Shown here: piece after piece, positions 19,301 to 57,800 of the stretch
How positions within the stretch are numbered: the first letter of the stretch is position 1
How the letters are laid out: each line of letters starts with the position of its first letter
From: Heliocidaris erythrogramma
Taxonomy: Eukaryota; Echinodermata; Echinoidea; Camarodonta; Echinometridae
Direction: 5' to 3'
DNA: 64,000 nt
NCBI GenBank assembly: GCA_025617745.1
Contig: CM046855.1
Location: 43,763,313 to 43,827,312, forward strand
Notes under the pieces: model-generated
Told to the model about the DNA's origin: nothing
What the model saw: only the letters and a program-made list of their open reading frames with translations
The model's database searches: none
Translations under genes and position numbers: made by a program

Positions 19301-19382
19301 TCGTCATAAAAGCACATTTGGTTGTGGTAAAATGCAGAAGCGAATTGTTGTACTGCATTTTGTAAACAATGTAGTAGTAGAA

Positions 19383-19415
<33 letters not shown>

Positions 19416-22400: not shown

Positions 22401-25400
22401 TGTTGTTTGTCATATTGCATGAAGGCCATACACAAAAGACAAAATCCAAAAATTTACGTTTCGGTGGAAGACGTTCGAGGTAATTATTGACCCGAATGAA
22501 TTTTTAAAATATTTTAAGATAATCCAGTCCACTCCTAATCCTAACCCAACTTACATTTCTTGCCAACAAATGCAAGGAAAGTCCTCACAATGATGCAGAC
22601 ATGGTGTATAATATAGCTAAGCTTATAATTTCAAAACACATCGCTGTTCAAAATGTCGGAGACGTCTAATTACTTCTGGCTTCTAAATATGAATACATTT
22701 TGTGGAGACAAAAGTCATGTCGGTGAGCTGTCACTTATTGTTCAGAGAGTTTTATCCAGCATATTGGAATTAATCCGATAGAATAGAATTTGTCAGGCAG
22801 ATATATGAAGGAAATTAGAGAAATTCCCTTCACGAGTAAATATTGACCTAGCCAAAGCCGATTATGAAAGAAATATTCGGCGTTCAAGTTTCGGCATTTT
22901 TCATCCTGTATAATAATCCAGGGGCGGATCGGGGGGGGGGGGATGATTCGGCCGCGGCTCCCCCTTTGAAACCTAACTGGCATACCTTAATACACAATTC
23001 CGGCTCTGTGTCCCCTCTTTTACAAAATCCTGGATCCGCCCTTGTAATCAGGACTGACCTTACATATTATCAGAAAATCATACTGCGAAATACCATGCCT
23101 TGTCAATATCCAAGCCACTGTGCATATTTGACTTTCGGGCACAAGTCACAAAAGGAAGTATAGGGTGATTCTGTTCTGTTTATCAATTCCAGCGCGAAAG
23201 TAAATACAATACCACCTAGCCTGACATGACAAATCCCACTTCCACACAAACTTGTGAATGGGGCCGAAGGTGGTATTAAATCTGTTTTGACACGCTGTGG
23301 AAATCACTGTATGAAATTTTATGACGAAAAATATGACAATGCCAACTGGACTAGCTTCTCGGTTATGTGTTGCTTCATTGTAGTTGGACAGACAATAAGA
23401 TTCCGGTCCTCTTTAACAGAAATATGGGGCCATATAAATGCCATGAATCATAAGATGTAGACAACTTCTAAGAACTTGTTAACTGGAAATTCATTAATTT
23501 GATTCATTCATTCGTCTATTATCATTTTCAAGTTATCATAGGAACATACACTTTGTGATGAGAATTATGTGTTTCATAGATTTGAGTAAACAATAGACAA
23601 ACGTCATGATACACAAGTTATGACCTTGGGGAAATTTAATAAAGTGGCATAAAAAAGTAAAATGTGCCCCTTTAAATTTTTGACCGCCAAAACGTATTTG
23701 GAATTATTATATTCATTTGTTTTTGCATTTTAGATTTTCTTTTGGAGACTATCATTTAGAAAAAAATATACGATAATTATTGTTTTGCTAGTCAGTATCT
23801 TTTGGGGGAATCCCCCCTTTACAAATACCCTGTGCATATAATTTATAATTCTTTTCGAAAACATAATGAGAATCAGTCACCATCACACATTACACACACA
23901 CACATGTACAATTAATTACAATTAATTACATGTACTGCGTTTCCCTTTGTATGATTTTGAAAGGAAACTGCAGGTTAGTTGTTGGCTATTTGTAAAGAAA
24001 CTGAATAATGCGACTGATGAATGACCAGTTTTTATGGCAACCCGAATATTGAATTCATGCTCTATATATTTTGCGTCGAAAATACAGAAAAGGATATTAA
24101 AAATCAATAATGAAAGATGAAATCGAACTAATGGTATGTTTACCATATGGCAATTTGGGATGCATTTCACGGACTCTGTATATCTATAAAACAAATTAGC
24201 CGTGAATGATAAGTAAATAAAACATATTAGCTAAAGCAAGTTCCTAAAAATAGTTTTGGTCAGGTGAATAGATCCATTAGCATTTTAGTTGTTTACTGCA
24301 CCTACTTATCCGTTATGACACTTCCTATAATAATTATATGCAGTCTTCAGGGGGTTATTTTCTTATTAAACTCTTTCGTGATGGGAGGGGGGAAGAAGGG
24401 GAGGGGATGAGGTCGCGCAACCCAAGAGCATGTGCCTACAAATAAAGAAGGAAATAAGAAGATTGACATTTTACCGACATAATTATTTCAAGTGTCGGAC
24501 GACATAATGTAACCAGAGAAAACGCTGTTTAAAAATGCAAACAGTTGTTTACAATATGACCTGAACAACCCGTTGTAAAGTTCATATTGTAAACAATTTG
24601 TTTAGATATTAAACAGGTTGTATAAGTTTTAAACAACCTTTTTAAACAGCGGTTTTACTGTGTAATATGATGACTAAATTACCAAATACCCATGGGGCGG
24701 GGGCATTATCCCTGCCCCTTCGTTTGGCCATTTCATTTCCCTTTGTTACCTTTATTAATTTGACTTCCCCAAAATAACAGTTTTAATTCAATATGACCCT
24801 TATGTCACATAATGCTAAAGCGAGATCTTGATAGGTATGAATATTGCCTATATTCATGTCTATTTCAGATCGTTTTTTTTCTGTCGGCAAACCCTCTTAT
24901 GGTGCAAACTATATGCATTGTAGCACAATCACATAACCTTAAGCTTTTACTTTCACGTTGTCAAGTTTAAGTTGAAATATTGGTACTTTGTGTACCCTTG
25001 TCGGCAAATTAACAAAAAAAAAACCCCAAAACAACCCCCCCCCAAAAAAAAAAAACTCTGAAGACCTTTGATTTGTCCTGTTCTGTTTGCAAATTTATTG
25101 CGTTACCACGCCCCGCCCCACTCTCATGTTCTAGCACCGTCTTCAGATATATTATGTGAATTTTTGTAAGCAATTGAAATTGTAAAAGGGACGGCCGGCG
25201 GGGGGGGGGGGGGGGGGGGGGGGGGGGAGAATACAATATTGTCTGGGTGATGCCATTTTGAATAAATGAACATTACAAAATAACAGTTTTAATTCAATAT
25301 GACCCTTATGTCACATTATGCTTAAGCGAGACTTCGGCAAATTTAACCCCCCCCCCAAAAAAAAAAAAAAAAAAAAAAACCTTTGGTTGGTTTTATTTGG

Positions 25401-27035
25401 CAGACCTCGATTTATATTTTGTTTGCAAAGTTATTGTGAAACCCTCCCCTACCCCACTCACAATGTTCCAGCACCGTCTTCAGTTATATTATGTGAATTT
25501 TTGTAAGTAATTGAAATTGTATAAGGGGACAACCAATGGGGGGGGGGGGGGAGATAAACAGGGTTATGCCATTTTGAATGAATGAACATTTTACTGTTTC
25601 TCAAGGATACACATAAAACCTGCTAAACTCGATCCCACAAGATGATAATAGTTAATCACGCAAAGAAAATTGGCTTGCAGAAAGGCAATTTAAAAGGGAA
25701 TTGGTTTGCAGAAAGGCAATTTAAAAGGGGAGGACTTTCTGGTGTTTCTTTTGTACAAATTTCACGAAAAACCTGTCTATATTTAAATGGAATGGTATGA
25801 AGTGTTCAGCATTTTTTAGGCCTCAGATTATATAGACTCGTCTCTGCTAGCAGAGCCCCCGTCTTCATCTGCCGTTCATATGCGAATTTCTGCAAGTAAT
25901 AGAATTGTTTTAATGGATGGGGGGGGGGGGGGGGACGGGTGGGGGGGGACAACAATACTGTCTGGATTATTTTATTCTTCTCATGCAAGGAATAAACACA
26001 AATCCTACTAAAAATGCCGGCTGAAACTCGGTCTTACAAAGCTAACAATTAATCACGCAAAGAATATGGGCTTGCAGAAAGGCGATTTAAAAGAGGAGGG
26101 GTCTTCCTTTATTTTGTTTATTTTGTAAACATTTCCTGAGATACTGTCGTTTTTATCGTTTTACTTTAACATGGACTAGTATAAAATGTTCATTGTTTTT
26201 CAAAACTTCAAGAAATATATGTGAACCAGTGATGGAAATGCATGGGATATAAGCACACTGTTATCCGGACGAATTCTCATCACAGCTATTTCAAATGTTG
26301 TGTAACCTTCAGAAGTTGTGTATGCGATTTCTCGATTTTGAAAAGCATTTGTAGTTTTCATCTTTTGTTAAGTAGACAGGTTGATCGCTCTACTACGTCC
26401 AGAACTAACGCAAAGTAGGGCTGAAATTTGCAAAGTAGCATGTATAATTGGATTAGAGCTTTGAATAGGGCATATCGAAAAAAGCTAGGCATTTAGCCTG
26501 GTACGCAGGAGAAATCCCACAAAACGTGTATGTGCGCGTGCGATGTGCTATGTTAGCATGACAATTTTTCCCACTTGACACTTTTACTTCAAAAGTACAA
26601 TTCATCTATGAGTTAAAGTCACTCTTTTTCTTCCCCTTTTCTAGTGCAGTTTTGTCTTTGTGCTGTCTTGTTTTTCTTGATTTCCCCCTTTTTCCTCTTT
26701 CTTTTTTTCTTTGTCTTGTTTTGTTCTGTGTTGTCCTGTCCTAGTTTTGTCCTGTTTTGTCTTGTATTATATCTTGTCAGTTTCTTGTTTTTCTTGGCTT
26801 TTGTTTGTCTGCTTTCCCCTTCTTCCCCCCTTTTTCCTCTTTTCTTTCTTTCTTTGTCTTATTTTGTCCCGTTTTGTCTTGTATTATCTTGTCAATTTCT
26901 TGTCCTCTGAGTCCTCCTGTCTTATCATTTGTTCTTCGGTGTAAAGCATCTTGCTATGAAAATTTCATTATAGATACAGGATTCATGACTACTTGATTAA
27001 TTATGTAATTATGAGAGATATGCCAATATATATGT

Positions 27036-27083
<48 letters not shown>

Positions 27084-27745
27084 AATGTGAAAGAAATTGC
27101 GAGAATAACGTTGCGTAGCTCAATCAAAGTTCCCCAGAGCTGTCCTCCCTGCCCTCACCTGCCCCCGACAAAGGAATTAATTAATAAGGTTGAGGATTTG
27201 TCAATCTGTCGGTCAATTGAATCTGGTGTCGCCGAAATCACTAGCCCGTCTCCGTGGTCTAGTGGTTAAGGCATTGGCGTTCTAAGCCAACGACCGGGTT
27301 CGATTCCCGGCGGAGACATTTTTTCAGCCTTTGCAAAATTTCAAAAAGGGAGGACAGCCCTGGGGAACTTTGATTGAGCTACGCAACGTTATTCTCGCAA
27401 TTTCTTTCACATTTGTATTTATTTCACGAGATTTGCCAAAGCTGTTGTATATGTTATTTCCTTACACTTATATATATATTATATATATATATACTTGTAG
27501 GGTGTTCTCCTTGTAGGACTGAGAGTGCTCGATGCGTTGCAGAGCAATATAGACAAAGACAAAGAATGCACACTAACACATGGTTCTATTTGCTACTCCG
27601 AGTTTCATGCTTTTAATAGCAATCTTCAGGCAAAATGTACTTCAATGTACTTCAATTGAAGTACATTTTGCCTGAAGATTGCTATTAAAAGCATGAAACT
27701 CGGAGTAGCAAATAGAACCATGCGTTAGTGTGCATTCTTTGTCTT

Positions 27746-27804
<59 letters not shown>

Positions 27805-30800
27805 TCAATATATATATATATATATATATGTATTCAAATATATATATATATATATATATATGTATTCAAATATATATATATATATATGTATTCAAATATA
27901 TATTTCACTTCCAATTTTCCATGATATAAAAGATAATTATGTTAATGTTATATTTATTCTTGGGAACCTACACAAACAAGCTATATGCTTTCCAGTAGGT
28001 TCCTTTTTCATTTCATGATTTTGTACATTGCCAGTCGATGGGGGGGGGGGGGGGCACGTGCCCCCTATATCTACGCCACCGTTCCTATAACTATATACAA
28101 TGTTCACATTGCAGCAAATGTGAAAACATTATTGAAAAATCATATAATGGGCGCAAGTCGAAGGGGGTGGGGAATTTTGGAGATATTTGGTTAGAAATTT
28201 CAAGTGAAACATCAAAATATCTAACCATTGTCAATACAAATTTGAGTACCCGATAAAAAAAAATCTCACGGTTGTTAGGCATTGCCCCCCCCCCCCCGCT
28301 CCGTATTAGATTTTGGCCATAGATGTAGATAGCCTAAGAACACCCAAATGACCGCAGTCGCACCGATAAAGGGAATCAAAACTCACTCTGACCGACCGAA
28401 TTTTGGCCATTTGGGTGGTAATGTAATTTTTTGTTCGGTCTGTCATCGATCCAACGGCGTAGCCGGGATTTAATTTTAGGGGGTGGGTGGTGCGAAATTG
28501 GTTATGAGCATCCGCACATACCCCCAACGAATCAACGAAGGACTAAATCTTGTTTGCTTCATGCTTTTGATTAATCATTTCAGACGTTGAAAACCCGACG
28601 TTCAACACATGCCCCAACGATATCGGCACAAGGGTGCTATCAGAAGCCGCATGCAACATCAGACTCGACTGGACCATCCCGACTGCGACAGACAACGATG
28701 GAGATCCGCAGATCGCTTATTCACATTTACCGGGTAGCAGCCTCTTCGACTGCGGTGTGACTGAGGTTAACATTACCGCCACAGATGAGTCCGGTAACAT
28801 CGCTTATTGCAAATTCAACGTCACCGTTGAAGGTAGGCTATATTAGGGTCTAAACGTAGGGGAGGGGTGAGGGGGTGTCACGGGGTCCGGACCACTTTCT
28901 TCACCTTGTTTTGCTTGTCAGATTTTTTTTGCGTTAAAAGGCATCCCCCAAACCGATGAGCTTTCAATAATATCACATTTCACGAATTATATTTGACGAA
29001 TCAAATCAACTCAAATTCTGATTTTGATCTCAGTTGGAGCTTACAAAAACTGCCCTGGCAACATCACCGGCGTCAACTCACCCGGCATGTTCACGGGGAT
29101 GGTTACCTGGACACCGCCGACCATCCTCGATCGCCAGCCCGACTGGGAGGAGACGGTGAGCCGTGAAGTTAACGACCAATTCATAGTGGGTACGACCAAC
29201 GTCACGTACACGCTGTCCGATCCTTCGGGCGCCGCCGATGTCTGCTTGTTTCTTGTCACAATCGTCGGTAAGAAACCGTGGTCGAAGCCGGTAAAACTTC
29301 GTGCTGGGAAAAATTCTCGGTGTAATAAATGCATACTGATAAAGAGTAGACCTAATGACTAATAAGCAAAGGAATATCCAGGATTGCTTGAAAGGGAAGG
29401 GCGGGCGGCGTGGGGGGCGGGGTGGACGCAAAAAAACAACAGCAAAGAATGTCCACAGGGGCGGCCCTCGGGGGGGGGGGGGGGGCAGGGGGCACAGTGC
29501 CCCACTTTTTGAAGTACCCCAAAATTGCCCTTTTTATTTCTGAAAAAAATTTCCTTTTCTTTCTGATAAGTGCCCTCCTTCTCCTTCGGATAAATGCCCC
29601 TTCCTTTTCTCATATGATAATTGGCTCCTTATCTCTAATAAGTGCCCTTTTCTCCTTCTGATAAATGCAAATTTACTTCGGATAGTGCCTATCTTTCTTA
29701 TAAGTGCCCTTTTCTCCTTCTAATAAGTGCCCTTTTCAAATACAATGATTCCCCCCCTTACTCCCTAATATGCCCTTTTTTCCCTTGATAAGTGCAATAT
29801 TACTTCGGATAGTGCTATCTTTCTTATGCGTGCCCTTTTCTCCTTTTAATAAGTGCCCCTTTTCAAATACAATGATTGTCCCCCCTTTCTCCCTAATATG
29901 TGCCCTTTTCTCCCTTGATAAGTGCATTCTTAATTTTGATATAGGTGCCCCTTTACATTTTAGTACCTATTTTCCCCTTCTGATAAGTGCTCATTTTCAA
30001 ATCTGATAAATGCCCCTGTTTTCTTCTGATAAGTGCTCTTTTCCTAACTAATATGAGCCCTTTCCCTCTTCTCATTAATGCCCATTTTCATCTCTTATAA
30101 GTGCCTCTTTCCATCTATGATAAGCACCACCCGTTCCTCTTCTGTTAAGTGCCTCCGTATACTTTCTTACAAAGAGAGGCATATCAAGCTTCAAAGAATC
30201 GGGGTGGCTTTATGTAGTAAAGGTATACTACGACTACAATGTAAGACAGTGGAGCTGGAGGCAAGAGGGGCACAATGCCCCTCACTCGAATGTGCCATAA
30301 CTTACACCAAGTATAAGGGCAATATTTTCTGAAGATTTTCCACAAAACTCGCTCGCTACGCTCGCTTGCTCTTATAGTTTAATTTAATGAAATCAAGCAG
30401 ATCACATAAAGTATGATGAGAAATCAGGCAGATCACATAAAGTATGATGATATCGATGTAATCATCATGGGGTTAATGTACGATTTAAAAGATCATTAGG
30501 CATTCCCAAAATTTAATTTGCTGTTGTCATTTTCATTATTATGGCTGTAAATAACAACCCAATCAGCATTAGAAAAAAGTCTGAATTGTTTTGTAATTGA
30601 CTGTAGGATTAATACCAATGATGTACCAATGTGACAAAATGGTCTCTGTTTTTTGCTTTATGTTCCCCTTTGTAAGTGCCCCTTTTTCTTCACTGGTGCC
30701 CTTTTGGCTGGTGCCCCCCACTTTGAAAGACGCTCCACCGCCCCTGAATGTCCATGATATATTAGTAGAGTAATATAAAGCGGCTATGTCAAATTTTGTT

Positions 30801-33800
30801 TCAATGAGGGGGGGGGGGGGGGGGGGGGGAGCCGGCTGACTTGTTCTTTATGTAAATGATAAAGAGAAGGTTGAGTTGTGGTAACAATGCAAAAATGGAG
30901 CTTTCTCGTTCCGCTCCTCATTTTAAAAATTCGTTTAAAGTTTACTATGAAAATGGTCAGATTTATGTCATCATAATCAATCACTTTCATCATTATCATC
31001 ATCACCCTCGTCATTACTTTTAAATTCAAAATATACTAAAAGGCCACGCTTATCATCCTTATTAACATCTATTTCATGATGATGATCATCGTCATGATCA
31101 TGATCTTGATCCTCATCCTCGTCATTTTCTTTTCTTCATAATTTGCAAATTATTAAAATCATTCTAAAATTCAAACCAGACGTGGAGCCTCCGACTATTA
31201 CATGCCCTGATGACATCGTTGCCATGGCAGCCAGTGAAGGGGGAGGAGCCATCGCGGGTTGGCCACAGCCCTTCCCCAACGACAACACGGTCGTCCATCG
31301 AATATGGAGCAACCACATGCCCGGGGAGGAGTTCCCCGTGGGCGACACGGTGGTCATCTACGGAGTCAATGACACGGCTGGGCTCACATCGTTTTGTAAT
31401 TTTACTATCACTGTCCGAGGTAGGTTTACTATTTTTATTGGCTGATACGCCAATCACACCAAAGAGACCGACGCTAAACTGAACACAGACCAAACAAAAA
31501 CAAAACAAACAACAAAAAAATACTCGCAGTGGTCAGAAATCGGTTGGTCAGGAGTCAGTTTGGAGTCGGTTTCGCGGTGTGACGGAGGTATGACTCTAGA
31601 TCGCATGGTAGATGGAGCGGTTTAAGGATGCGGCGTACGTAGCAACACAATAAGGGGAGGGGTGGGAGATACATTACCAAAATGCAAGAAAAAGGGAAGG
31701 TATAAAGTTATCGGGGAGGGGGAAAGAGATTGTGAGAGAAAGATAATACAACACTATACATTTAACTCTCCGCACCGGGTCACTGTGCTACCTCGCACTT
31801 CAATCTCCTAACTTTAGTTAGGCCAATGCCCCGCTTATGACCCTGAAACCAAAGACAGTATAGTTTTTGTCATGCTTTTTACACAAATTCTCCATATTCA
31901 TGTGATTTCCACATCAACGACAAGAAATATCTTCTCCTACCTCCCACATCAAACAGACTTCGTGCTGAGCCTCTTCACTCAAATCGATGGCTACACCTTT
32001 GTCGACAATGATGACGCAATCATCAACGCTTCCGATGTCGTCGAATGCCTTGATGCTTGCATCGATGAGGAGACGTTCTTATGTCGTTCAGCCGAGTTTA
32101 CGTCATCGGGAGAGTGTCGTCTGAGCGAGAACATCGCGAGAACCGACGACGATCTCCAACAACAAGATGGTGTCATCTATTTTGAAAAATTAGGAGGTAG
32201 GTGAAGGTTGTTAGAAAAAGGTCAAACTGAATACAGATTATAAGATGAGGATGTATAACATTCCCGTTGCACACGGGTTATCATTTTGACTGCGTTATTG
32301 CCTACGCTGATTTAACATAATATGAAAAGAAATAAGTGCATGTGCAAGTAATCAAGGCAATGGCTGCACTTTAAAAAAAAATATTTCACTTTTGCAGGGG
32401 ACATTCACATGACGCAGTCCTAGGTACGTCACCAAATGACGCATCGTGTAAAACGGGCATATAATAATTATGGAGATATAAATATTTTGTGAGTCGTATT
32501 TATTGGAGCATGTTCACTACCGTTGGCATGTAACGGCGGAACGTGCAGTGAGCCCGGCTTACACGATGCGTCATTTGCCGACGTAAGGACCGCGTCGATC
32601 AAGCTATGTTAAAGTTAAATAGGATTGCGAACGTGAACAAAAGGTCCGACGCTCGCGTTGGCAGTTGCCACCATTCTGTATGTGCATGCGTTGTTGCGCC
32701 ATTCCTACGCTGAGAAAAGGAAATCGAACCGGTTCGAATTTCTTTTCTCTATTCTCAATTGCGTTATGACCTGCGTTATGAGCTGCGTTAATCAAGTCCG
32801 TGAAGACATTGAGCGCATGCGCCAGTTATTCTAAGGAATGTTCATTTTACATTTCTTTTATGCATTATGCCACTTTCTGTCAAGGCGCCAGGGGTGTCGA
32901 TCCGTGTTCATGATTGGGGGGGGGGGGGGGGGATGACCAGCGAGGGAGCGAAACCAGTGGCGTATCTAGGGATTATGACGCCTAGGCAAACAACGATTAC
33001 GCCCACCGCAGAGTGCCCAAACCTTTTCTCTTTTTAATGATTTTTTTATTAGGTAGAGTGCCCAAACTTATCTACGTTACTGTACAAGCGAGGGAGAAAA
33101 GCAACAGAGCGGCAAAATTTTCAACTTCTTGTGCATTTTACCAAGGAAATTTTGCTATTGAGCGGTAGAGAAGCTCGCATTTCATACATTGCTAAACGGT
33201 TTTCTATTCACTCACTTCTACAATCGGGAGCAAAACTAATGAAAACCCTAAAGGCTTGAGAAAGAGTCGAGAAATTCAGCAAGGCTACGAGATACGAGAT
33301 CCTGAAAGAAAATAATTATGCGAGGGAGCAAAGCGACCGAGCTTTGGGCATTTCAAACTTCAAAAACTACATTTCTAGTGCATTTCCCCTGCGGATTTGG
33401 GGGCGCATAATCCGTAAGGATGATGATTTTTCTTCATTTCCCCCTTTTTTCTTTCTCTCCTCGTTTTTTTGCGCCCCCTCCAAGTGCCGCCCGGGGCACT
33501 TGCCCCCTGCCCCCTAGATACGCCACTGAGCGAAGCGACTGAGCGGGGGAAGGTGTGGAAAGGGGGTGTCCCCTCTCACACCAGGGACTTTTCTCAAATC
33601 TTTCTATAAAACTTGCATTTTAGAGCATCATAAAATGGTTTTCAATGAAAGGAAGGAATTCACAGATCTACGCCAATGGATGAAACCCCTTAATTTGATT
33701 TGATTTGATTTGATTTGATTTGAATTTATTCAGGCATTATAAAAACATGTCTGGGGGAAAAAAAAGGTATGACCAACCCATCTGTTTCCTGGATATAAAC

Positions 33801-36800
33801 CACACATATATTCAATATCATAAACATATTGCACAATGTAAACGATAGACAATAACGATGATTGCAAGTAAAATCATTGTAGTATTGCAGAGTATAAAAT
33901 TACTTAGTTGAGGTTAAGCATCTGTGAAATTAACTATGTGGGTCGAGATGGTTATTTCACGCTTTTTTAAACATGCTAAGAGTTTTCATATTGACTGCAT
34001 ACTTCGGAAGTTTGTTCCAATCATTTATGGTTTTAGGATAAAATGAGTCCATATAATAATCTGTTCTTGCGAAGGGTACATGCATCTTTAAGTTGTGATC
34101 GTTTCTCTAAATTCTGTTCGCAGGTGTGCGCCTGTTTTTATGTCCTATATCTATAATAAAACACAATTCGGAGGTACTTTCGTCTATTCTCTAATGTATT
34201 CATACTTAACTTTTGCAGTAAAGTATCATAACTAGTGCTCCAGTCTTTGCACATCATTCTTAAATAGCGTTTTTTAATTCGCTCGACGAATTATTTTTGT
34301 GAATTTCTATATGGATCCCATGCTATACAACAATAATCCAAACGTGAGCTTTTTAAAGATTCATAAAGATAAAGATTTTGGACAGTCAACAATTCTATTG
34401 CACTTCATTATTTATTCAGAACAATTCCAATTTCAACACCAGATTTAACATCAATCCATTAAGAAAATTCACCGTTAATAACAACTCTTTGCGATCTTTT
34501 TTTTGTAAAAAATTCATTATCCAATTTAAAATGCCCTAGCAAAATCAAGAAAATCAATATGAACACTTGAACCTGTTTCCAAAATATATGACCAATCATC
34601 GATAACCTCTATTATTGAGTTTCGCATGATATTTTTCACGAAAACCATGTTGGTTATCACATAAAATGTTATTATTGTTAAAATGTTGAGAAGGTATGTG
34701 CAGACTATTCTTTCTAAAATCTTACATGTAACAGACGTTAAGGATATTGACAGGTAATTACTAGCTTTGAGAATAACAATGCGAGCGAACGAATTTATAT
34801 ATTCGCATTGAAATTATGCCATTTCTTATTTCCTTACTTCTATAATCATTAAAGAATGTGAGGGTATTTCAAGATCCAACATAATGAGTTTGGATAATTA
34901 TTAGTTATTAAGTTAAAATATCATAATTCTTGTTTATTTTAAACAAAAATATGGGGGGGGGGGGGGGGTGATAATACGGCTCTCACCCACCTCAAATTGG
35001 GGGGGGGGGGGGGGGGTATACTCCATCCCGCGGGATCGACACCCATGCAAGACGCCTCAACTTGAGACCGCGCAAGTTCCTAACGCAATTCTGTGTCAGC
35101 AAAATGACGCCGATCATAAGTCCTTTTGCTGGCGTAGGACGGCGTCATCGACTTGAGCGCTCTGTTTGCGTCATTTCGAAATCGAAAGATTCCTAAGTTA
35201 CCAAACATAAAATGCATCATTTCATTTTTAGACAATACACCACCGACTATTTGGATCTGTCCCAACGATGTGAGTCGACCTGCGGATGATGGTCAGCGTT
35301 TCACCGTCATCGCCTGGCTTCCTCCCTTAGCTAGTGATGACGGCGGAAATTCTGTCACGCTGACGTCGTCGCATCAGCCTGGCGATGTATTTTACCTCGG
35401 CACCACCGAGGTCGTGTACACTGCCGTCGACGAGTTCTTGAATCGTGCAACTTGTATCTTTACTGTTACTATCATTGGTAAGTATAGACCTACTAGCAGA
35501 AGCAGCCCGTGGACATCCACGGGCGCTAGCTGTGTTTTCTGATTAATCACCGTACCGTTACAATATTTACCGTATTTACCGTATATGTTACAATAATCAA
35601 GTGAATAAATAAAAAAGTCGGGTAAAGTTATTTTTACCAAGAAGTATTTACAACATGTCCATTGACGGACCCAGGGGGGGGGGGGGGGTGCTTCTGGCCG
35701 TGCCATCCACCCCCCCCCCCCCCCCGTTCAATGGGAGGAAAGTATGCATTTTGACCATAGACGATCCGCCCTTTTGTTGATTGTGCCCCCGCCCCTTTTA
35801 GAATGAAACCTTCTTTTTTTTTGCTTGTCAGAGAATTATGGAGGGACCCCATAACCACCCCCTCCTGAGCGAATTTTCTAGGTCTGACGAAAAAAAAATT
35901 CTCGCCACCCCCCCCCCCCCCCCCAGGTCTGCCTTTTCCAAAAGTTGACAAACCTGCACTTGTTTCCCCGCCTTATACTAAATTCTGGATCCGCCCCTGA
36001 TCATGTGAATATGTCTTATTTATCCAAAGCTTGCATGAGTTCTGAAGAAAATTCCTTTTAATCTTGATGAAAATTGATGATATGGATATAATAATGTTCG
36101 AGTAGAATATCCATGCATAGACCTAGAGGGGGCGATTTGATCTTGCCATGTGTCTGTGGTTTATTAATACTCAGAGTAACATCCATAATTAGCTGTACGT
36201 CCCCTGTAAAGGATGCAATAATGAGAAAAAATGAATTTGTCATTTTATTTTCAGGGGGATTATGGCCCCCTTATATGGGTCTTGGGAGGACCGACGGATT
36301 GACTTCCCCCTACTACCCCCCCCCCCCCCCCCCTCCAGCTCCCCCATTCCATTGTCATCCCATCACCCCCAGGGCGAGGGGAGCAGGGATTAATATCATT
36401 ATACGTATTCATAATCATTATGGAAATATTTTCGAAGGAATTTTCTTCTTATCAGATTTTTTGATAAAGTGTCAAATTACCGGTAGCGAACGTCGTGAAA
36501 CATACAAATGATGTAACTCTATACCTGTATGATGACCTGTACACGTACGTGCGAACGATCTAACACGTGTGTATAATACTGTACTGTACACTGAAGCCAT
36601 GAGGATATATGGCCATGCTGTTCTTTGGCATAGCTCCCCTTCACAGGGAAAGGTATATGGGTTGGCTGGGCCTGAAGCTACAAACCCGCTTCATGGGTTG
36701 GTGGAATTATTAGGCCTACTCCCTGCGGAAATTCAATGTTTAAAAATGAATTTATGAAATATGGACGGGACGTCAGCCCTCAAGAAGTGCCTCCCACCAC

Positions 36801-39800
36801 CCTAAGAACCCTTCCCCACCCGTGGGTATCAAAAGGCGGGGACCGAAAGGGCCAGGGGAGGAGCCTATTTGAACCAAAAAAAGAGCCCGAAATCCTTAGT
36901 GTATTATATTATAAGATATTATCATTATCGCGAAAACTAATGCTGATCTAGGGGAGGTCGAAACTGCCACTGCCCCGATGAAAAAGCATAGGAAAGAAAA
37001 TCATTCGCTACGCTAAGAATTTTTATATTCTGGGGAAAAGTTCCACTGCCGCCTTTTAAAAAAAATTCCCATACATCTTGGAAAAATTCCTACTATAATG
37101 TTCCATAGATTAAAAGAAAATTGTCATGTTGTGGCATTTTTAACTTTAAAAAAATATTTTTTTTTGCGGGGACGGGGGGGGGGGGGGGGGGGGGGGGGGG
37201 AAGGCCCTATGAACTTCAGGAAATCATATTCGGGCGGCAAAAAGAAATGACGGGATATTTTCGGTACCCCATTTCAGACAATTCTTGATTTGACCCGTCC
37301 CTACTGCTTTATATATCTCTAAAATTTAGAATGTAAGCGAAAGAATTAAGAACTTATTGATTGAAATATTAGATGGGTCCTGTACGACATTAAGTCTTTT
37401 ATTAATTCTTGTCATCCAAAAGAAAAATATTTTGATGCTATACCATTAACAAATTTTTTTTATGGTCCCATCGAAAATAATATCAAGAGACTTTTCATTT
37501 TTTTATTAGTGAAAATGGGTAAAAGACTGATGTCGTAAGGGACATGTTGTGTGGAATCGCCCTTGCTGCTCCCAATGCGTTTGTTTTCTTAAAATTTAAT
37601 ATCTTATTCAATATTTTTTTTTGCAGATGATCAGGACCCGGTTATACAAGATTGTCCAGGCCTTACATTAGGTTACCTACACTCTGCGGACAAACAGTCT
37701 GTCGCGGTCTCCTGGGCGGCACCATCTGCCTTGGACAACTCTGGCATGGTGAGCCTGACCGCTTCCCATCAAACCGGCGCTATGTTTAGGAGAGGAGAGA
37801 CCGTTGTCAGGTACACGGCGGTCGATCCTTCGGGCAATGGAAAGACTTGCTCATTTACCGTCTCCGTTGTTTTGTTACAAGGTATGGGGTCTTACAACCT
37901 TCTTCAAATAAATCCAGTTCTTATTACAGTTCGAAGAAACAATTTGTTCATGAGCAGAAACCCAATGAGATAAATATCGCAGACGTGTTCCTGAAAGTCA
38001 TGTAATCATAATTGCAATCATTATTCGTAATATTATGCACCGACAGTGCTTTCCATAATACACAGCATGGGCGTCAATCCGAGTAGAGAATCTATTGTTC
38101 ATGGGGGGGGGGGGGACGGCTATTGTGTCGTCCCCCCCCCCCCATGATGAATAGAGTGACGTCACGATTACCGCCCATGATACACAGGTGGAAGTATTCT
38201 CAGTGGTGGATCCAGGAATTTGAAATAGGGAGGGGGCGCCAGTGGCGAGGGAGCAGAGGGTGTTGGAGGGGGTAAATCTGGAGTGGACCTTCTTCTCTAA
38301 AATGCGCAAAAAATAGGACCTCTCCATGTCTAAGAAGTTTGCGGATATTTATATAGGGTCATTTTGTTCCATATGCTAACTGCTAACTGGTCTATGATTA
38401 GTCCATTTCGCAAATGACTCCAAATATCCACGGCATTTTTAAACGTGGAGGAGTCATTTTGTAATAGCTATTTCCAAAGTAATACAGGTGCTTCGTGAGT
38501 AGCTTCTGCAAAAAAGAAAAAATTCTACTTCCACCAGAGTATCATGGGATGAGAGCAAGAAAATGAGAGAGAGGACGAAAAAGGAAGAAAGAGAGAAAGA
38601 GAAAACAGAGGGGGAAAAAGGAGATAAGGAATAGCTCTAATATTTTGAACTTGTCAAGATTTAATTCAATAAAATCTTTCTGATATCGTTATATTCCTAC
38701 AGATCAGAAGAGGTTCGCTTTGAGGATTTTGCTACCAAATCTTGTGTATTCAGATAGCCTAGCAGATAAGGATTCGCAACATTATCAAATGATAGATGAG
38801 ACCCTGCAAATAAAGGTGAGAGATATGTAGGTAATGATGCAGATTTATCCTGGAATTCAGGTAAAATCCTGGAAAATTAGTTCCCTGTTGAAAATGATCC
38901 TCAGTTGTGTATCGATCAGAATTTACCGGTATACTAATAAGTCAAATTGGTATTTTCCGCCTTGTTTCCACCCTTTGTAGGTGCTCCTTTTTGTTGTTGC
39001 CCCCCACTTTAAAAGATGCTCCACGCCTCTGATGATTGAATTGAGTGCGAAATGAACACCGTTACGTTAGGCTGTCTTGCCCCCCCCCCAGTCCGAAAAA
39101 CGGATCAACGCCCCTGTATGATAGTAATGTGTGGAATATAAAAATAATTGTTCTGGACCCTACCATATAAAAGAGTTGCAATTAATTGTATTTTATATCC
39201 TTCGCTTGATCGTATCTTTATAATCAGTAACGAATTCCTATCAACGTTATGTTGCAGATAGATACAAATCATTGTTAATTATACAATCAATTGTAGCAAG
39301 AAGGGGGATATATGAACAGCAAATTTTTTTTACAATTGATTGTAACGTTGATTTTTATTTTTGAGGGCCAGTTCTCATGACATGCTATGTGTTAAAACTA
39401 ACAAAAAACAAAAACAACATTGTGCTTCCTCTGAATTGGATGTAATATTTTTTTAAAAACATTATAAACTTTTCCATTTTGTGACCAAATCTTCATTTCA
39501 TTTTAACAGGTTGATGAAGCTTTTGCAATGGACCCTACGTTTGTAGACTATACAATCATTAACATCACGTGAGTATGATTATAATCTACCTTTAACCATG
39601 AAAAACAAAACCTTCAAATTGGAATTTTATATATAAGAATGGCATAGGGACATCAACAATTGCAAGTTTAGATTTGGTTCAGGGTTGCTCCTTTTGATTC
39701 GGGTTGCTACTTTCCAGCCTGTAATACGATATTATTTGTACATGTAATGTTCGAAAATTAAATCATAAAGCAAATCATTCCTTGAACCTATATCACTCTC

Positions 39801-46099: not shown

Positions 46100-47935
46100 A
46101 GAAACTAGAAATGTGCATTGCTGGGGCCGCGCAATGCTAAATGTATCCCCCGGCACTGGCAGCGATTTGAAGGAGGGACAAAGACCCTCCCCCATCCCCT
46201 CCCTCAAACAAAAGGATGGTGTAGAAATTAGATGTGTAGGTTTCACTAAGATACATCTCCATACAAAATTTGAAAGAAATCCATCAAGAAATGTGGCCTG
46301 CAGAGTGCACTCACGCCATGCCCTGAAGTATGACCTTTGACCCTATAAAGGACGGAACAATGAGGGCAGCATCACCAAAAATTAAATATGTGTAGATTAT
46401 ACCAAGATACATCTCCATACAAAATTGGAATGAAATCCGTCAAGAAATGCAGAAGTAAGAGTGCACAAAAGGGACAAATGAGCTTTGACCCTATAAAGGA
46501 TGGAACAATGAGGGCAGCATTACCAAACAGTAAAGATGTGTAGATTATACCAAGATACATCTCCATACAGAATTTGAAAGAAATCCATCAAGAAATGTGG
46601 CCTGCAGAGTGCACTCACGCCATTCCCTGAAGTATGACCTTTGACCCTATAAAAGACGGAACACTGGTGGCAGCATCACCAAAAACTATAGGTTTTTAGA
46701 TTACACCAAGAAACACCTTCATGCGAAATTTGAACGAAATCCGTCCAGAAATGCAGAAGAGTGCAAGAAATGGAAAAATGACCTTTGACCCTATAAAGGA
46801 CGGAACAATGAGGGCAGCATCACCAAAAATTAAATATGTGTAGATTATACCAAGATACATCTCCATACAAAATTGGAATGAAATCCGTCAAGAAATGCAG
46901 AATAAGAGTGCACAAAAGGGACAAATGAGCTTTGACCCTATAAAGGACGAAACAATGAGGGCAGCATCACCAACCAGTAAAGATGTGTAGATTATACCAA
47001 GATACATCTCCATACAAAATTTGAAAGAAATCCATCAAGAAATGTGGCCTGCAGAGTGAACTCATCCCATCCCTTGAAGTATGACCTTTGACCCTATAAA
47101 AGACGGGACACTGGTGGCAGCATCACCAAAAAGTACAGATTTTTAGATTACACCAAGGGACACCTTCATGCAAAATTTGAACAAAATCCGTCAAGAAATG
47201 CAGAAGTAAGAGTGCAAGTAATGGAAAAATGACCTTTGACCCTATAAAGGACGGAACAATGAGGGCAGCATCACCAAAAATTAAACATGTGTAGATTATA
47301 CCAAGATACATCTCCATACAAAATTTGAACAAAATCCGTTGAGAAATGTGGCCTGCAGAGTGCACTCACGCAATGCCCTGAAGTATGACCTTTGACCCTA
47401 TAAAAGACGGAACACTGGTGGCAGCATCACCAAACACTATAGGTTTTTAAATTACACCAAGAGACACCTTCATGCAAAATTTGAACGAAATCCGTTGAGA
47501 AATGTGACCGCCAGAGTGCACACAAGAGTAGACACAAGACATCTATCAAAATATGACCTTTGACCCTATAAAAGACGGAACACTGGGGGCAGCATCACCA
47601 AAATCTATAGGGTTCCAGATTTTACCAAGAGACACCTCCATACAAAATTTGAACAAAATCCGTTGAGAAATGTGACCGCTAGAGCGCACACAAACTATCC
47701 CAAAAATATGGCCTTTTTCCCTATAAAAGACGGAACACTGGGGGCAGCATCACCAGAAACTATAGGGGTCCAGATTTTACCAAGATACACGTCCACAGGA
47801 AGTTTGAAAAAAATTCGTCGAGAAATGTGACCGCTAGAGCGCACACAAGAATGTGACGCGGCGGCGGCGGCGGCGGCGGCGAAACGCTGCTGAATCCAAA
47901 GTATCCTCCGGCATACTGCCGGGGGATACAATAAA
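46100..47935. mobile_element. Hairpin-ended element with ~10 x 150-bp internal array
   Basis: The left end has ACTAGAAATGTGCATTGC, pairing with GCAATGC, then GTATCCCCCGGCACTGGCAG. The right end is a hairpin GTATCCTCCGGCA/TGCCGGGGGATAC. Between them TTTGACCCTATAAA recurs about every 145-170 bp (46338, 46486, 46642, 46786 and on). A (CGG)n run is at 47859-47881. No transposase or Rep/Hel is present. The structure resembles non-autonomous Helentron/HINE elements. Confidence 0.6.
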
Positions 47936-48890: not shown

Positions 48891-51800
48891 CTGTCAAAAC
48901 ATGGTATTATTCAGTACTCTCAAGTCTCAATCATAATGATATAAACTTCACTGTAACCATTAGAAATACCAATATCTATAAAAAGTTTAGATGTTCTACT
49001 ACAAAAACTAAAAAATGACAGAGACAGAGACATAGGTATACAGAGACAAAAAGCAAGAGAAAGAGACAGGGACAGTTAAAAGACAAGAAATAATATAAAA
49101 GAAATATTTACCAATGCTGAGAAAAATATGAAATGGAACAAGTAATCGATAGAGCCATACTGAAATCACTACACCAATATACTCTATACTCTTTCAAAGT
49201 GGCAATGCTCAGGGATTCTCTCTCTGTTATGGGTAAACTGTTTGAAGAGATATGCACCGCAGAAATGAGATCCTCTCAAATTAATTTCTTCTTTATACAA
49301 GAACTTCGTCAAAATTTGATCATAGAAATATGATCTCGGGGGTGTTTCACAAAGAGTTAAGTTGGACTTAGAGACATACGTAAGCGTTTAAGTTTAAGTG
49401 CCACTTTAAGTCCAACATAACTCTTTGTGAAACACCCCTAGGTTTTCTAAAGGCACGTTCACATATAACATGGTAGACCATAGTTAAACTAGAAATATCA
49501 CTGAAGATGATGATTAATACCCCCGCCCCGTGACAACAGCCTTTCTTGACTTTTGGTCGAAAACTGAGAAAGTAGTTCGATCCGCAAGATTTTTCCCTGA
49601 TTTACTGCCATAGATATGCCATTTCCATGGCAACGCAGCTTCCGACACATCAAAAAAATATGTTGTACACATCTTCCAGTAAGAACAATGTATGTACCAA
49701 ATTTCATGACTTTCGGTCAAAAACTGAGGAAGTAGTTCGATCCGCAAGGCGTTTCCTTGATTTTCTGCCATAAATATGCCGTTACCATGGCAACGCAGAT
49801 TCCGACACATCAAAAAAATATGTTGTACACATCTTCCCAGTAAGAACAATGTGTGTACCAAATTTCATGACTTTCGGTCAAAAACTGAGGAAGTAGTTCG
49901 ATCCGCAAGGCGTTTCCTTGATTTTCTGCCATAAATATGCCGTTACCATGGCAACGCAGATTCCGAATCATCCGAAAAATATGTCTTGCACATCTTCCCA
50001 CCAAGACCAATGTGTGTACCAAATTTCATGACTTTCGGTCAAAAACTGAGGAAGAAGTTTGATCCGCAATGTGTTTCCTTGATTTTCTGCCATAAATATG
50101 CCGTTACCATGGCAACGCATATTCCGACTCATCCGAAAAATATGTCTTGCACATCTTCCCATCAAGACCAATGTGTGTACCAAATTTCATGACTTTCGGT
50201 CAAAAACTGAGGAAGTAGTTCGATCCGCAAGCTGTTTTCCTTGATTTTCTGCCATAAATATGCCGTTACCATGGCAACGCAGATTCCGACTCATCCGAAA
50301 AATATGTCTTGCACATCTTCCCATCAAGACCAATGTGTGTACTAAATTTCATGACTTTCGGTCAAAAACTGAGGAAGTAGTTCGATCCGCAAGCTGTTTT
50401 CCTTGATTTTCTGCCATAAATATGCCGTTACCATGGCAACGCAGATTCCGACTCATCCGAAAAATATGTCTTGCACATCTTCCCACCAAGACCAATGTGT
50501 GTACCAAATTTCATGACTTTCGGTCAAAAACTGAGGAAGTAGTTCGATCCGCAAGATTTGCAACGGACCGACCGACCGCCCGCCCGACCGCCCGCCCGAC
50601 CGACCGCCCAACCATCGACTGATTCCAATATACCCCCTTCAAACTTCGTTTGGCGGGGGTATAAAAAAAAAAAGAACCAAACATTCTATGCTTACCTGTG
50701 TGTTAAGAGATAAACAAATGTGAAGCGCAATGCTTATTTTGCTTTGGCAGTTTACCTCGCCATGTGCGAATATGTGAGAATGTAAGATACTCAGGGAAAA
50801 TATTCATCATCAAAGCATCTGCAAAAACGCAGAAGAAATAGTGACAATTTAAAAGAGAAAGTCTTTACCTTCATGTCTTGCCTTAGCAGCTGTCTTAAAG
50901 AAGATGGAGTCTTTGAAGTAATCCCATGGGTCCACTCCCTGCATCTCATTCCACCTACAGAATATCAGGGTACATGGAATGTTACACTTGATCAAATTTT
51001 ACAGTGCCTACTTTACTACCCCTTATACAGTAAAAGCACATATTTCAAATTCCATGAATAATCCTAATCATAACGATGTTAAAGATAGAAATTGCATGTC
51101 TCGTACATATAACTATTATCAGTGTACACATTTTCGGATACTGTATTGAGGTTCCAGGACATATTAAAGGCACTTTAATTTGATTTGATTTGATTCATTC
51201 AATAATATTTAATATTGCAGCTCTAAGGTTATATTAAAAATTTACAAATTAAAAATAAATACATAAAAGAGTACATGTAACACCAATCAAAATAAATAAA
51301 TAAACTGAAATCTTGATAAGATATACATGTAGTTTCTTAGGTGACTATGATTTAGAGACATAATATATAGTGGTAATGGACGACAGATTAGAAAAAAAAA
51401 ATTATTGAGTGATATTCAATTGATAGAATACACAACAAATTAAGTTTCGATAGAGAAATAATTCTGTATCGTTATGTACTCTCCTAAAAAAAGTTGATAC
51501 CGTTTTTTTTAAATCTCAAAATATGAAAAATTACAGCCAGGATTACTCACTCGTCTTTAAGAATAGCTCTGCACCATATTCTCACCATCAGGTCTTTATA
51601 GAGGGAACCATCCTTGAGAAGGAAATGCACATTCAAACAAATTGAAATCACTCAGAAATACAATTCAAATTTTTGGCAAAAGGAAAGGGAGAGTGTGTTA
51701 TTTAAGTGTTTTTTACAGTCTATTCATTAACTAGTGATTATTAAAAAGTAAGTTTAACAAGGGATAATTTTACATGTACTTCTCTCTCTCTCTCTAAAAA

Positions 51801-54800: not shown

Positions 54801-57800
54801 CACTGAAAACAAATCACAGTGTTAAACTCAGACAAGAGGTAGGTTACTCCACATGTTTTAGGTGAATGTAAAGTAATTGTCATTTGGAAGTTTGTATGTG
54901 ATTTGAGGGTCTTGTTCACACTCACCAGTAATCTCTCTTTGATGAGTGTTGTCTGACGCTAAAGCAGCAAGCTTGCCCATGCTCAGCAGAGTCTGCAATC
55001 AACACAAAAATTCTGATATAATTTCTCGAACTTATACCAAATCTTTTTCTTGAATGTTCTTGTACACTCATGATACTCAAGGACTAGTAAATTTCTTGCT
55101 CAAAGAGGTGGTGAAATATTGCATATAGATGGACCAGAGCTATTGGATTAACAGAGTCGAGACAGAGAAAGTCGCTTCTGGTTGGTCAGTTACTTCATGG
55201 AGCTCCGAATAGTTCCCTTCCTTAGAAATTTAACATATGAGGAAACTATTAGGAACTCCAATAATTTAACCTATGACTTTGCCTGGACTCTGCATGGTCT
55301 GCGCTCGTGTATCATGTCAAACTTGCATGTATCTCTTTCAATACGCTAAGAGATGAATAACCTAACTCAAAAAATATTACAAAAATAAGAGCTAAAATAC
55401 AGTCTTGTTATCATCATACTTGCTCACTCAATTAAGAAGTTCTTTTTTTTTTTTTTATTTCTTTTTTTTTTTACTCATTTTGATGGATTTTAAACACATG
55501 ATTATTATTTACCTTCTTTTTAGAGACTGAGAAAGATTCTCTGGCTGCAAGTTTTCTCAATGTGTCCTGTGCCTGTAAAGAAAAGCATGGACATACCATG
55601 AAGTAAGAAAATATGACAATTCAATCATACTTATTCATATTGGTTTTCAGAAGCATCACCAAAGTATATAATCAATGCCTTTATGCTGAAATCGTACTTA
55701 GGTAGCTTAGCGAAATGTTGTGTAACTGTTCAGAATCACAACTTTATGATAAAGGTTTGATATTACCTTAGCTCCTCTTTAGATTTGTTAAATTACATCT
55801 TTTAATTCACTGATTTCACCAAGTACGTTTCCATGTAATATTATGCCTTTAGCGTTCTGGATCCGTCTTTCATTTTCATTTCATTTGTTCTTTATTCGCT
55901 TTAAAAAGCACATATACAAATACAGAAATATATAAATATATGCATGTACAAGAGAAACATAAACAACAACAATAACAGTATATAAAGACTTCTACACAAA
56001 GGCACATTCACAATACTATGTACATGTATTATTAGAAGAAAAAATATGGGACTACATTTCGCTAAGCTACAATGAACCTTACAAGATATTCTGAGCTGGG
56101 TATGACCTGAACAGACCTTGGAGTCGTTTATCCTGAATAGGGAATAGTCTCCACTGACCTGGGAGTAAAAAGTGCTGACCTGGGATCGATCAGTACTGAC
56201 TTGACCTGGGAGTAAAGAGTGCTGACCTAGTGCTGACCTGGGACTGATCAGTACTGACCTGTGACCTGACCTGTGACCTGACCTGGGATTGATCATTACT
56301 GACCTGTGAGTAGTTATTGGTGTGGATGTCCTGTAGCCAACCCAGGTGATCATGAGGTTGTAAGAATTCACTCAGCTCTGGACGATGGGCAAAATGGGTC
56401 AGGAGCTTCCCACGTTGACCTATTGACACAAACAACACACAGCGTAAAGTCTAGTCTAAAAGACTGATGTAACTTTCCTAAACTAGAGAGTTTCTTTCCG
56501 TACAATAGCAACCCGTAAAGTGTTGTACATAATGAATAAGAATCTCTAAGTTGGTATAAATATCAATGTGTTGTCGATTTTTTTTCTTTCTTTTGAAGTC
56601 AGAAATAAAATAATGAAAAAAGATTAAATAATGAAAAAAATTAACTATTTTGATCATCTTAACTAAAACCACAAGATCCGCTTCATATAAACAATTATTA
56701 TAAAATACAAATATACTTGTATCATATCATAGAAGAAGAAGAACTTTGAGTTGTTTGATGCACTGGACATTACACAACAAAGCATCTCTTTTTATCAGAT
56801 TGAATGAATAAAAATACACTGAACTCACCTCTGTCAATGTAGTATTTGAAAACAAAGTCAGAGAAGCCCTGTGAGCACAGAAACAAAAGAAACAAAAGAA
56901 ATACATACATTTTAGAATTTTAAAATGTAGAGCTTTGATAAGAATTGGAAATGTAGCCCATGACAAACAGACCTAGCCATTCAAAAGAAGAGACATAGAG
57001 ATGTTACAAAAGCTGTATGGGGTGAAAGTGAATATCATGTTTCAAATGAAGAAACTAAAACACAATTTGAAAGAATGGCCGAGATGAATTTGTCATTTAG
57101 AAGTACTACATGACTCAGGGAATTGACATGAAGGGCAAATAACATTAGATAAAAAATTCAGATGCAATAGCTAAGAAAAAACAGGAAATAAGTTAGGAAA
57201 TGAAGGACTAAGGCAAGAGATGCGTCAGAATCAACTTGAAAGGCATCATGAAATTCTTTTCACATTTGATTTTATACATCTTGTAAATAAGAAATAATAT
57301 AAGCATAATAATAACATAATAACAATAACAACTGCAATAAACAACAACAGTAACAACAACAGCAATAATAATAAAAAGCAAAAGATACGACTGCGTCTTC
57401 AATATGCCTTAGCCTCTTGTCGAGGCCCTGGCGCTGTTGAAATCCTTAGCGATATGGAGGCAAAATTTCTGGCTCGCTTCGCTCGCCAGAAAAACCGAGG
57501 CGCTTGCGCCGAAGGCCTCTTGACACCCGATCTGAATTTCTTTTGTATTTCATTGTTTTGACGAATATTCCGACCAAATTTTGGTCGGTGAAAATCATCC
57601 AATAAGCGCGAGCTACCATGACGTAATGTTAAATATTCATGACTCGACTGTACGCTATTTCTTACATATTAATTAATCGCAGCCCAAAATGGCGTTCAAC
57701 GTTTCTTCCACGATGAGTGATGACGATATTTGTAAGAGCTTAGAATACTGTATAAGCTGATATTTTCGCGAATGACGACCTCTGCCACATATTCGCGTGT

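What the first reader, a model, noticed from the sequence alone, without database searches (positions are those of the whole stretch)
56236..56310. A minisatellite multiplies the 5' splice site of a nup133 exon, in frame
The donor of the exon ending at 56304 is CAG|GTCAGT. The intron then continues as a degenerate repeat in which CAG|GTCAG recurs. Reading the minus strand, sites with the same phase lie 21, 33, 45 and 66 nt further on, and no stop appears until about 114 nt. Using any later site would add [11 protein letters not shown]-type residues without breaking frame. This could be an in-frame alternative-donor ladder, with length varying between individuals, in a conserved pore scaffold protein.
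Basis: partly seen in the sequence, partly recalled or inferred. Interest (0 to 1): 0.72.

Follow-up and report, generated by a model that had tools for sequence, protein, structure and literature searches.

The report
Repeated splice site beside nup133 exon
A short tandem repeat has copied the splice signal at the end of one nuclear-pore gene exon several times; this is a known kind of repeat, the copies are probably mostly ignored decoys, and their staying in frame fits chance.

Summary
On the minus strand, nup133 exon 56419-56304 ends CAG|GTCAGT. A degenerate 12/21-nt array begins 6-9 nt inside the exon, with in-frame donor copies at +21, +33, +45 and +66 and the first stop at +111. The unit has no other match in the assembly within 3 mismatches.

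The first donor gives an ungapped join to human Nup133; the +66 form loses 22 bits. Copies after +66 are out of frame. Permuting the spacings puts the first four in frame in 180 of 840 orders.

The kind is known: amphioxus "mirages" (PMC3087553) and the human ABCA7 VNTR, whose next-unit donor carries 2 +/- 1% of transcripts (PMC5954066). In this genome, 13 of 22 donor-motif arrays examined lie at or just after an apparent exon donor. With nup133 added and two paralogues merged, 4 of 13 have spacing divisible by three, as chance predicts. One array, on contig C17, stays open for 1,407 nt. Transcripts and length variation could not be tested.

The parts
56304..56419 (-). nup133 exon whose donor is copied; reads [38 protein letters not shown] after the split first codon, ends in phase 0
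56298..56303 (-). authentic 5' splice site GTCAGT (CAG|GTCAGT); the only one of 14 nup133 donors with C at +3
56154..56309 (-). core of the degenerate 12/21-nt minisatellite, from 6 nt inside the exon into the intron; weaker copies may run on to 56091
56237..56282 (-). in-frame donor copies, first intron bases 56282, 56270, 56258 and 56237 (offsets 21, 33, 45, 66)
56190..56192 (-). first in-frame stop of the read-through (+111)
56153..56158 (-). copy at +145, GTCAGT with the same 9-mer as the real donor, out of frame and past the stop
55573..56303 (-). the 731-nt intron that holds the array
55513..55572 (-). next nup133 exon ([20 protein letters not shown])

Best explanation
It is a short, degenerate 'mirage': a minisatellite born at an exon-intron boundary, whose unit contains the 5' splice site and a few bases of the exon end. 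Slippage or unequal exchange multiplied the boundary (inferred). The spliceosome most likely uses the first donor for nearly all transcripts (inferred), and the later copies are decoys used at most at the level of a few per cent (inferred from the ABCA7 case). Four decoys keep the frame by chance, because the first unit lengths are 21 and 12.
For: Array similarity crosses the boundary: 6 nt of exon in the 32-nt family, 8 of 9 exon nt against the +145 copy. Local birth: 3 of 3 unit matches in the assembly are in this array. First donor preferred by conservation: ungapped junction at 133 bits against 111 bits and a split match for the +66 form. Frame by chance: 180 of 840 orders of the spacings, and 18.7% of base shuffles stop-free over 111 nt; 4 of 13 loci divisible by three, P(X>=4) = 0.68. 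Same architecture at other exons of this genome and in the literature.
Against: The exon part shared with the array is short here (6-9 nt), unlike L047 or L058, so an array that merely abuts the donor is not excluded. Good donor copies are truly concentrated: 2 at least as strong as the real donor in 200 nt, against 4 in 8,549 nt of 12 other nup133 introns (recalled human weights), so some use is plausible. In ABCA7 the VNTR length does change splicing (exon 19 skipping), so such arrays need not be inert. No transcript was seen.
Confidence: 0.8

Rival explanations
1. A working in-frame alternative-donor ladder: later copies are used regularly and give Nup133 forms with 7, 11, 15 or 22 extra polar residues.
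For: Four in-frame copies without a stop; the +45 copy equals the real donor; in ABCA7 the next-unit donor is used at 2 +/- 1%.
Against: The two nearest copies score 3.2 against 8.2 for the real donor by a matrix from 13 other nup133 donors; an equally strong copy at +145 would break the frame; the insert interrupts a conserved alignment; no frame bias across loci. Human tandem sites are reported to be selected against in ordered regions (PMC2279118, abstract and one section; the study concerns 3-9 nt shifts).
Confidence: 0.08
2. An intronic minisatellite of independent origin that drifted against the exon; its likeness to the donor is secondary, through overwriting of the ancestral donor.
For: The real donor is the only one of 14 with C at +3; exon similarity is only 6-9 nt; residues YSQ at the exon end are not shared with human Nup133.
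Against: No other copy of the unit in the assembly within 3 mismatches; other arrays in this genome plainly carry exon ends.
Confidence: 0.1
3. Recursive splicing or exon-creating use: CAG|GT copies with a pyrimidine tract serve as combined acceptor and donor.
For: CAG|GT sites at +98 and +145 have 65% pyrimidine upstream.
Against: Weaker than the real acceptor at 75%; the intron is only 731 nt.
Confidence: 0.02

Closest known systems
'Mirages' of amphioxus (Adh3; globin genes BflGb6 and BflGb9), PMC3087553, passages seen
   Different: Length instability and normal splicing were shown there and are untested here; here the exon part is only 6-9 nt and the first copies keep the frame
Human ABCA7 intron-18 VNTR, PMC5954066, passages and two sections seen
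   Same: The array starts at the donor of the exon; each unit brings a donor; the next-unit donor lies one unit downstream
   Different: 25-bp unit that breaks the frame, 12 to about 427 units, length known to vary and to correlate with exon 19 skipping
Human internal tandem repeats at exon-intron boundaries in segmental duplications, PMC2812944, passages seen
   Same: Minisatellites at exon-intron boundaries altering gene structure
   Different: Reported as a source of new introns; no new intron is inferred at nup133
Tandem alternative splice sites and GYNGYN donors, PMC8055015 (abstract) and PMC1779574 (listing only)
   Same: Closely spaced competing donors
   Different: Those are pairs a few nucleotides apart with transcript evidence; here the copies are 12-21 nt apart, come from a repeat, and have no transcript evidence

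Membership tests
Mirage (exon-intron boundary minisatellite) | Tandem repeat spans the exon-intron boundary | tested here: met
   32-nt unit 56278-56309 crosses 56304/56303 by 6 exon nt; the exon part is short
Mirage (exon-intron boundary minisatellite) | Repeat units carry AG/GT splice signals | tested here: met
   CAG|GT recurs through the array
Mirage (exon-intron boundary minisatellite) | Length varies between haplotypes or somatically | not testable with these tools
   one haplotype, no reads
Mirage (exon-intron boundary minisatellite) | Regular splicing is kept | not testable with these tools
   no RNA; conservation across the junction is indirect support
ABCA7-type donor VNTR | The authentic donor belongs to the first repeat unit | tested here: met
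   donor copy is 31-32 nt of the family at 94%
ABCA7-type donor VNTR | A next-unit donor is used in transcripts | not testable with these tools
   no RNA
In-frame alternative-donor ladder | Two or more donors used in transcripts | not testable with these tools
   no RNA
In-frame alternative-donor ladder | Frame preserved beyond chance | tested here: not met
   180 of 840 orders; 4 of 13 loci divisible by three

The most novel reading that the evidence does not exclude
Boundary minisatellites ('mirages') recur widely in this genome and act as natural libraries of near-identical 5' splice sites. Most copies are ignored, but arrays whose unit keeps the frame leak length-variant proteins. nup133 would be a weak case; the contig C17 array (about 27 units of 51 nt, open for 1,407 nt, a 17-residue repeat VSHHELDATSKQLADTK) would be a strong one.
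Probability: 0.25. Interest if true: 0.6.

Novelty: new member of a known kind. Interest (0 to 1): 0.32.

Why it matters
Arrays that copy a real donor many times, often with part of the exon end, ask directly how the spliceosome picks one of several near-identical 5' splice sites. The published cases seen here are amphioxus genes and human genes. A dozen or so arrays in one genome, with unit lengths from 19 to 68 nt (12 and 21 in nup133) and up to about 35 copies, would make the question testable with ordinary RNA-seq. The nup133 case by itself changes little.

Tried and rejected
Dispersed mobile repeat: rejected for the array itself. The unit pattern has no match elsewhere within 3 mismatches, and the 271-nt region matches only itself (that search skips very common words). 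A 20-nt inverted repeat in the same intron could mark an inserted element; the window holds only the two arms as exact matches, and my genome search for it did not complete.

Donor arrays enriched as such: not seen. Match counts are below those of the reversed control pattern: 7 against 14, 79 against 271, 185 against 251, 71 against 165. These count overlapping matches, not places. In the window 4 of 4 AGGTRAGT sites look like donors: two are nup133 donors, one ends an ORF with a HYR domain, one is by eye only. So arrays of this motif sitting at donors need no special mechanism.

Accessibility by folding gave no clear preference: mean unpaired 0.46 for the real donor and 0.22-0.67 for the four in-frame copies. 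The human donor weights used there were recalled.

Literature: 10 searches were answered. No title or abstract start in their listings reports this locus; listings were capped and most listed papers were not opened. The original Adh3 mirage paper was tried by a recalled DOI and not held; Hicks 2010 was not held. Two further papers were opened for background and not used in the argument: PMC6783452 (passages) and PMC11830802 (passages).

Host taxon: not settled. A cytochrome oxidase search did not complete. 'Echinoderm or near' is a guess from HYR-domain content.

Limits of the comparison set: Pfam above cut-off supports 3 exons (L046 Rap1 Myb and L050 AIG1; L062 myosin head); hits are below cut-off for L047, L052, L061 and L066; L058, L059, L060 and L063 gave none, and L012 none, so these rest on reading frame and splice sites. 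L053 was not scanned; it is a close copy of L052. In L050 the array starts inside the intron. 'No exon visible' means about 240 nt before the first triple (arrays) or 401 nt, partly array in some. C1:39402845 was not examined, one search listed only part of its places, and two further places (L005, L006) were looked at but not classed.

Full report
What is there. The window is G000:C3:43763313-43827312 of an unnamed assembly of 1,064,227,859 bases in 26 contigs. Its minus strand carries nup133. Fourteen exons, chosen by splice sites, join into one open frame. The translation matches Pfam Nucleoporin_C at 74.6 bits, cut-off 25.9, and the 161-residue part around the finding matches human Nup133 at 133 bits. 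The exon in question is 56419-56304, followed by a 731-nt intron and exon 55572-55513.

The repeat. After CAG|GTCAGT the sequence runs on in steps of 21, 12, 12, 21, 11, 21, 5, 21 and 21 nt between CAGGTC-like starts (each 12 is printed there as 5 + 7). TRF reports overlapping arrays between 56154 and 56306. The 32-nt unit at 56278-56309 is 94% identical to the one at 56233-56264, so similarity begins 6 nt inside the exon; against the +145 copy 8 of 9 exon nt match. A 16-mer of the unit has 5 matches in the window, 4 of them in the array, against 0.32 expected. In the whole assembly the 29-nt unit pattern with up to 3 mismatches has 3 matches, 3 of 3 in this array. So the array most likely arose here.

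The ladder. Offsets 21, 33, 45 and 66 are in frame and the first stop is at 111. By a weight matrix from the 13 other nup133 donors the real site scores 8.2, inside the 5.5-12.7 range of the others; the four copies score 3.2, 3.2, 8.2 and 5.8. The copy at +145 also scores 8.2, but is out of frame and past the stop. By human-like weights (recalled), the first 200 nt hold 2 copies at least as good as the real donor, against 4 in 8,549 nt of 12 other nup133 introns. Donor-like decoys are truly concentrated here.

Is the frame special? Permuting the observed spacings between GTCAG copies, 180 of 840 distinct orders put the first four in frame, and 18.7% of base shuffles have no in-frame stop in 111 nt. 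After +66 the copies are out of frame. This is what first units of 21 and 12 give.

Which donor is used? The 56303 donor gives an ungapped junction ([14 protein letters not shown] against EINSQELEK|AHATL; human 948/949 by my count from the alignment). With the 22 extra residues the best score falls from 133 to 111.2 bits and the match splits in two. That speaks for the main form, not against a minor one.

Wider view. I searched the assembly for three donor motifs in tandem: CAGGTNAGT with gaps 3-33, AGGTRAGT with gaps 4-34 and 35-65 (list cut short), and AGGTAAGT with gaps 35-65. Searches list 23 distinct places (11 + 8 new + 4 new), and I read the heads of 22. In 13 of the 22 an apparent coding exon ends at, or just before, the array: L046, L047, L050, L052, L053, L012, L058-L063 and L066. 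In 9 none was visible in the short stretch read: L048, L049, L051, L054, L055, L057, where the array covers the end of a last coding exon, and L064, L065, L067. Pfam supports three of the exons above cut-off: Rap1 Myb in L046, AIG1 in L050, myosin head in L062. In several the unit plainly carries the exon end with the donor: 22 nt at L047 and 33 nt at L058 counted with up to two mismatches, longer by eye at L060, L061 and L062. Names such as dynein or ABC-C for some of the others rest on weak hits or memory. Against any special mechanism, the match counts do not exceed the reversed control (7 against 14, 79 against 271, 185 against 251, 71 against 165).

Frame across the class. Taking the spacing to the next copy, with L052 and L053 as one and nup133 added, 4 of 13 are divisible by three: nup133, L046, L012 and L066; P(X>=4) at one third is 0.68. 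For L047 and L050 I used the unit length (35 and 19), because their first spacing is disturbed. L012 reaches a stop within three codons in its exon frame, so frame and openness hold in 3 of 13. There is no sign that frame matters. The exception in scale is C17: exon MKKTKGKM...QLADTK, then about 27 units of 51 nt reading VSHHELDATSKQLADTK, open for 1,407 nt past the first donor. Whether that is intron or exon cannot be told from DNA; the units are so alike (5 of 51 columns vary among 23 units) that codon-position counts have no power.

What is known. PMC3087553 (passages) describes tandem repeats spanning exon-intron boundaries in amphioxus Adh3 and globins, called mirages, with unstable length, somatic instability at Adh3, and data suggesting that regular splicing is not disturbed; it proposes them as a source of new introns. 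PMC5954066 (passages; two sections) describes the ABCA7 intron-18 VNTR whose first GT is the donor of exon 18. There the next-unit donor gives a frameshifted transcript at 2 +/- 1%, its share did not change with VNTR length, but exon 19 skipping rose with length. PMC2812944 (passages) reports human repeats at exon-intron boundaries linked to new introns. So the kind is known, and nup133 is a new, short member of it.

Verdict. The proposed in-frame ladder is better read as chance frame in a boundary minisatellite. Shown: anatomy, uniqueness of the unit, frame statistics, recurrence of the architecture. Inferred: birth by slippage or unequal exchange, near-exclusive use of the first donor. Not testable here: transcripts, polymorphism, relatives.

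Noticed in passing
G000:C17:10069359-10070743 (L069): About 27 copies of a 51-nt unit start exactly at an exon donor and stay open and in frame for 1,407 nt (repeat VSHHELDATSKQLADTK); the clearest in-frame donor ladder or coding repeat found.
   Followed up: partly
L046 near 4863 (+): Exon of a Rap1-type Myb domain followed by an array of about 42 nt; read-through stays open over two extra units.
   Followed up: partly
L058 (C3:44957080-44957978): The apparent real donor is GTAAAG, while the array copies downstream are GTAAGT, closer to the consensus than the real one.
   Followed up: no
L065 (C16:42859616-42860343): A 45-nt unit carries both an acceptor-like TTCTTACAG and a donor-like GTAAGT around a 17-nt core, repeated many times.
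   Followed up: no
L057 (C3:10092089-10092606): A 51-nt array built on the last coding codons and stop of a Trm112-like gene.
   Followed up: no
window 55702-55721 and 56051-56070: 20-nt inverted repeat, 95% complementary, arms 329 nt apart in the same intron just past the array; possibly an inserted element. The genome search for it did not complete.
   Followed up: partly
window about 18974-37970 (+): Several exons with HYR domains (5 of 9 ORFs scanned) and one with a PAN domain: an HYR-repeat gene or genes on the plus strand.
   Followed up: partly
window 27248-27318 (+): tRNA-Arg (TCT), found by Rfam and ARAGORN.
   Followed up: no
window 46230-47848 and 49542-50555: Longer tandem arrays, about 155-156 nt (10.4 copies) and 161 nt (6.3 copies, 95%).
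   Followed up: no
L012 7413-8345 (-): Tc1/mariner-like transposase reading frame upstream of the 42-nt donor array.
   Followed up: no
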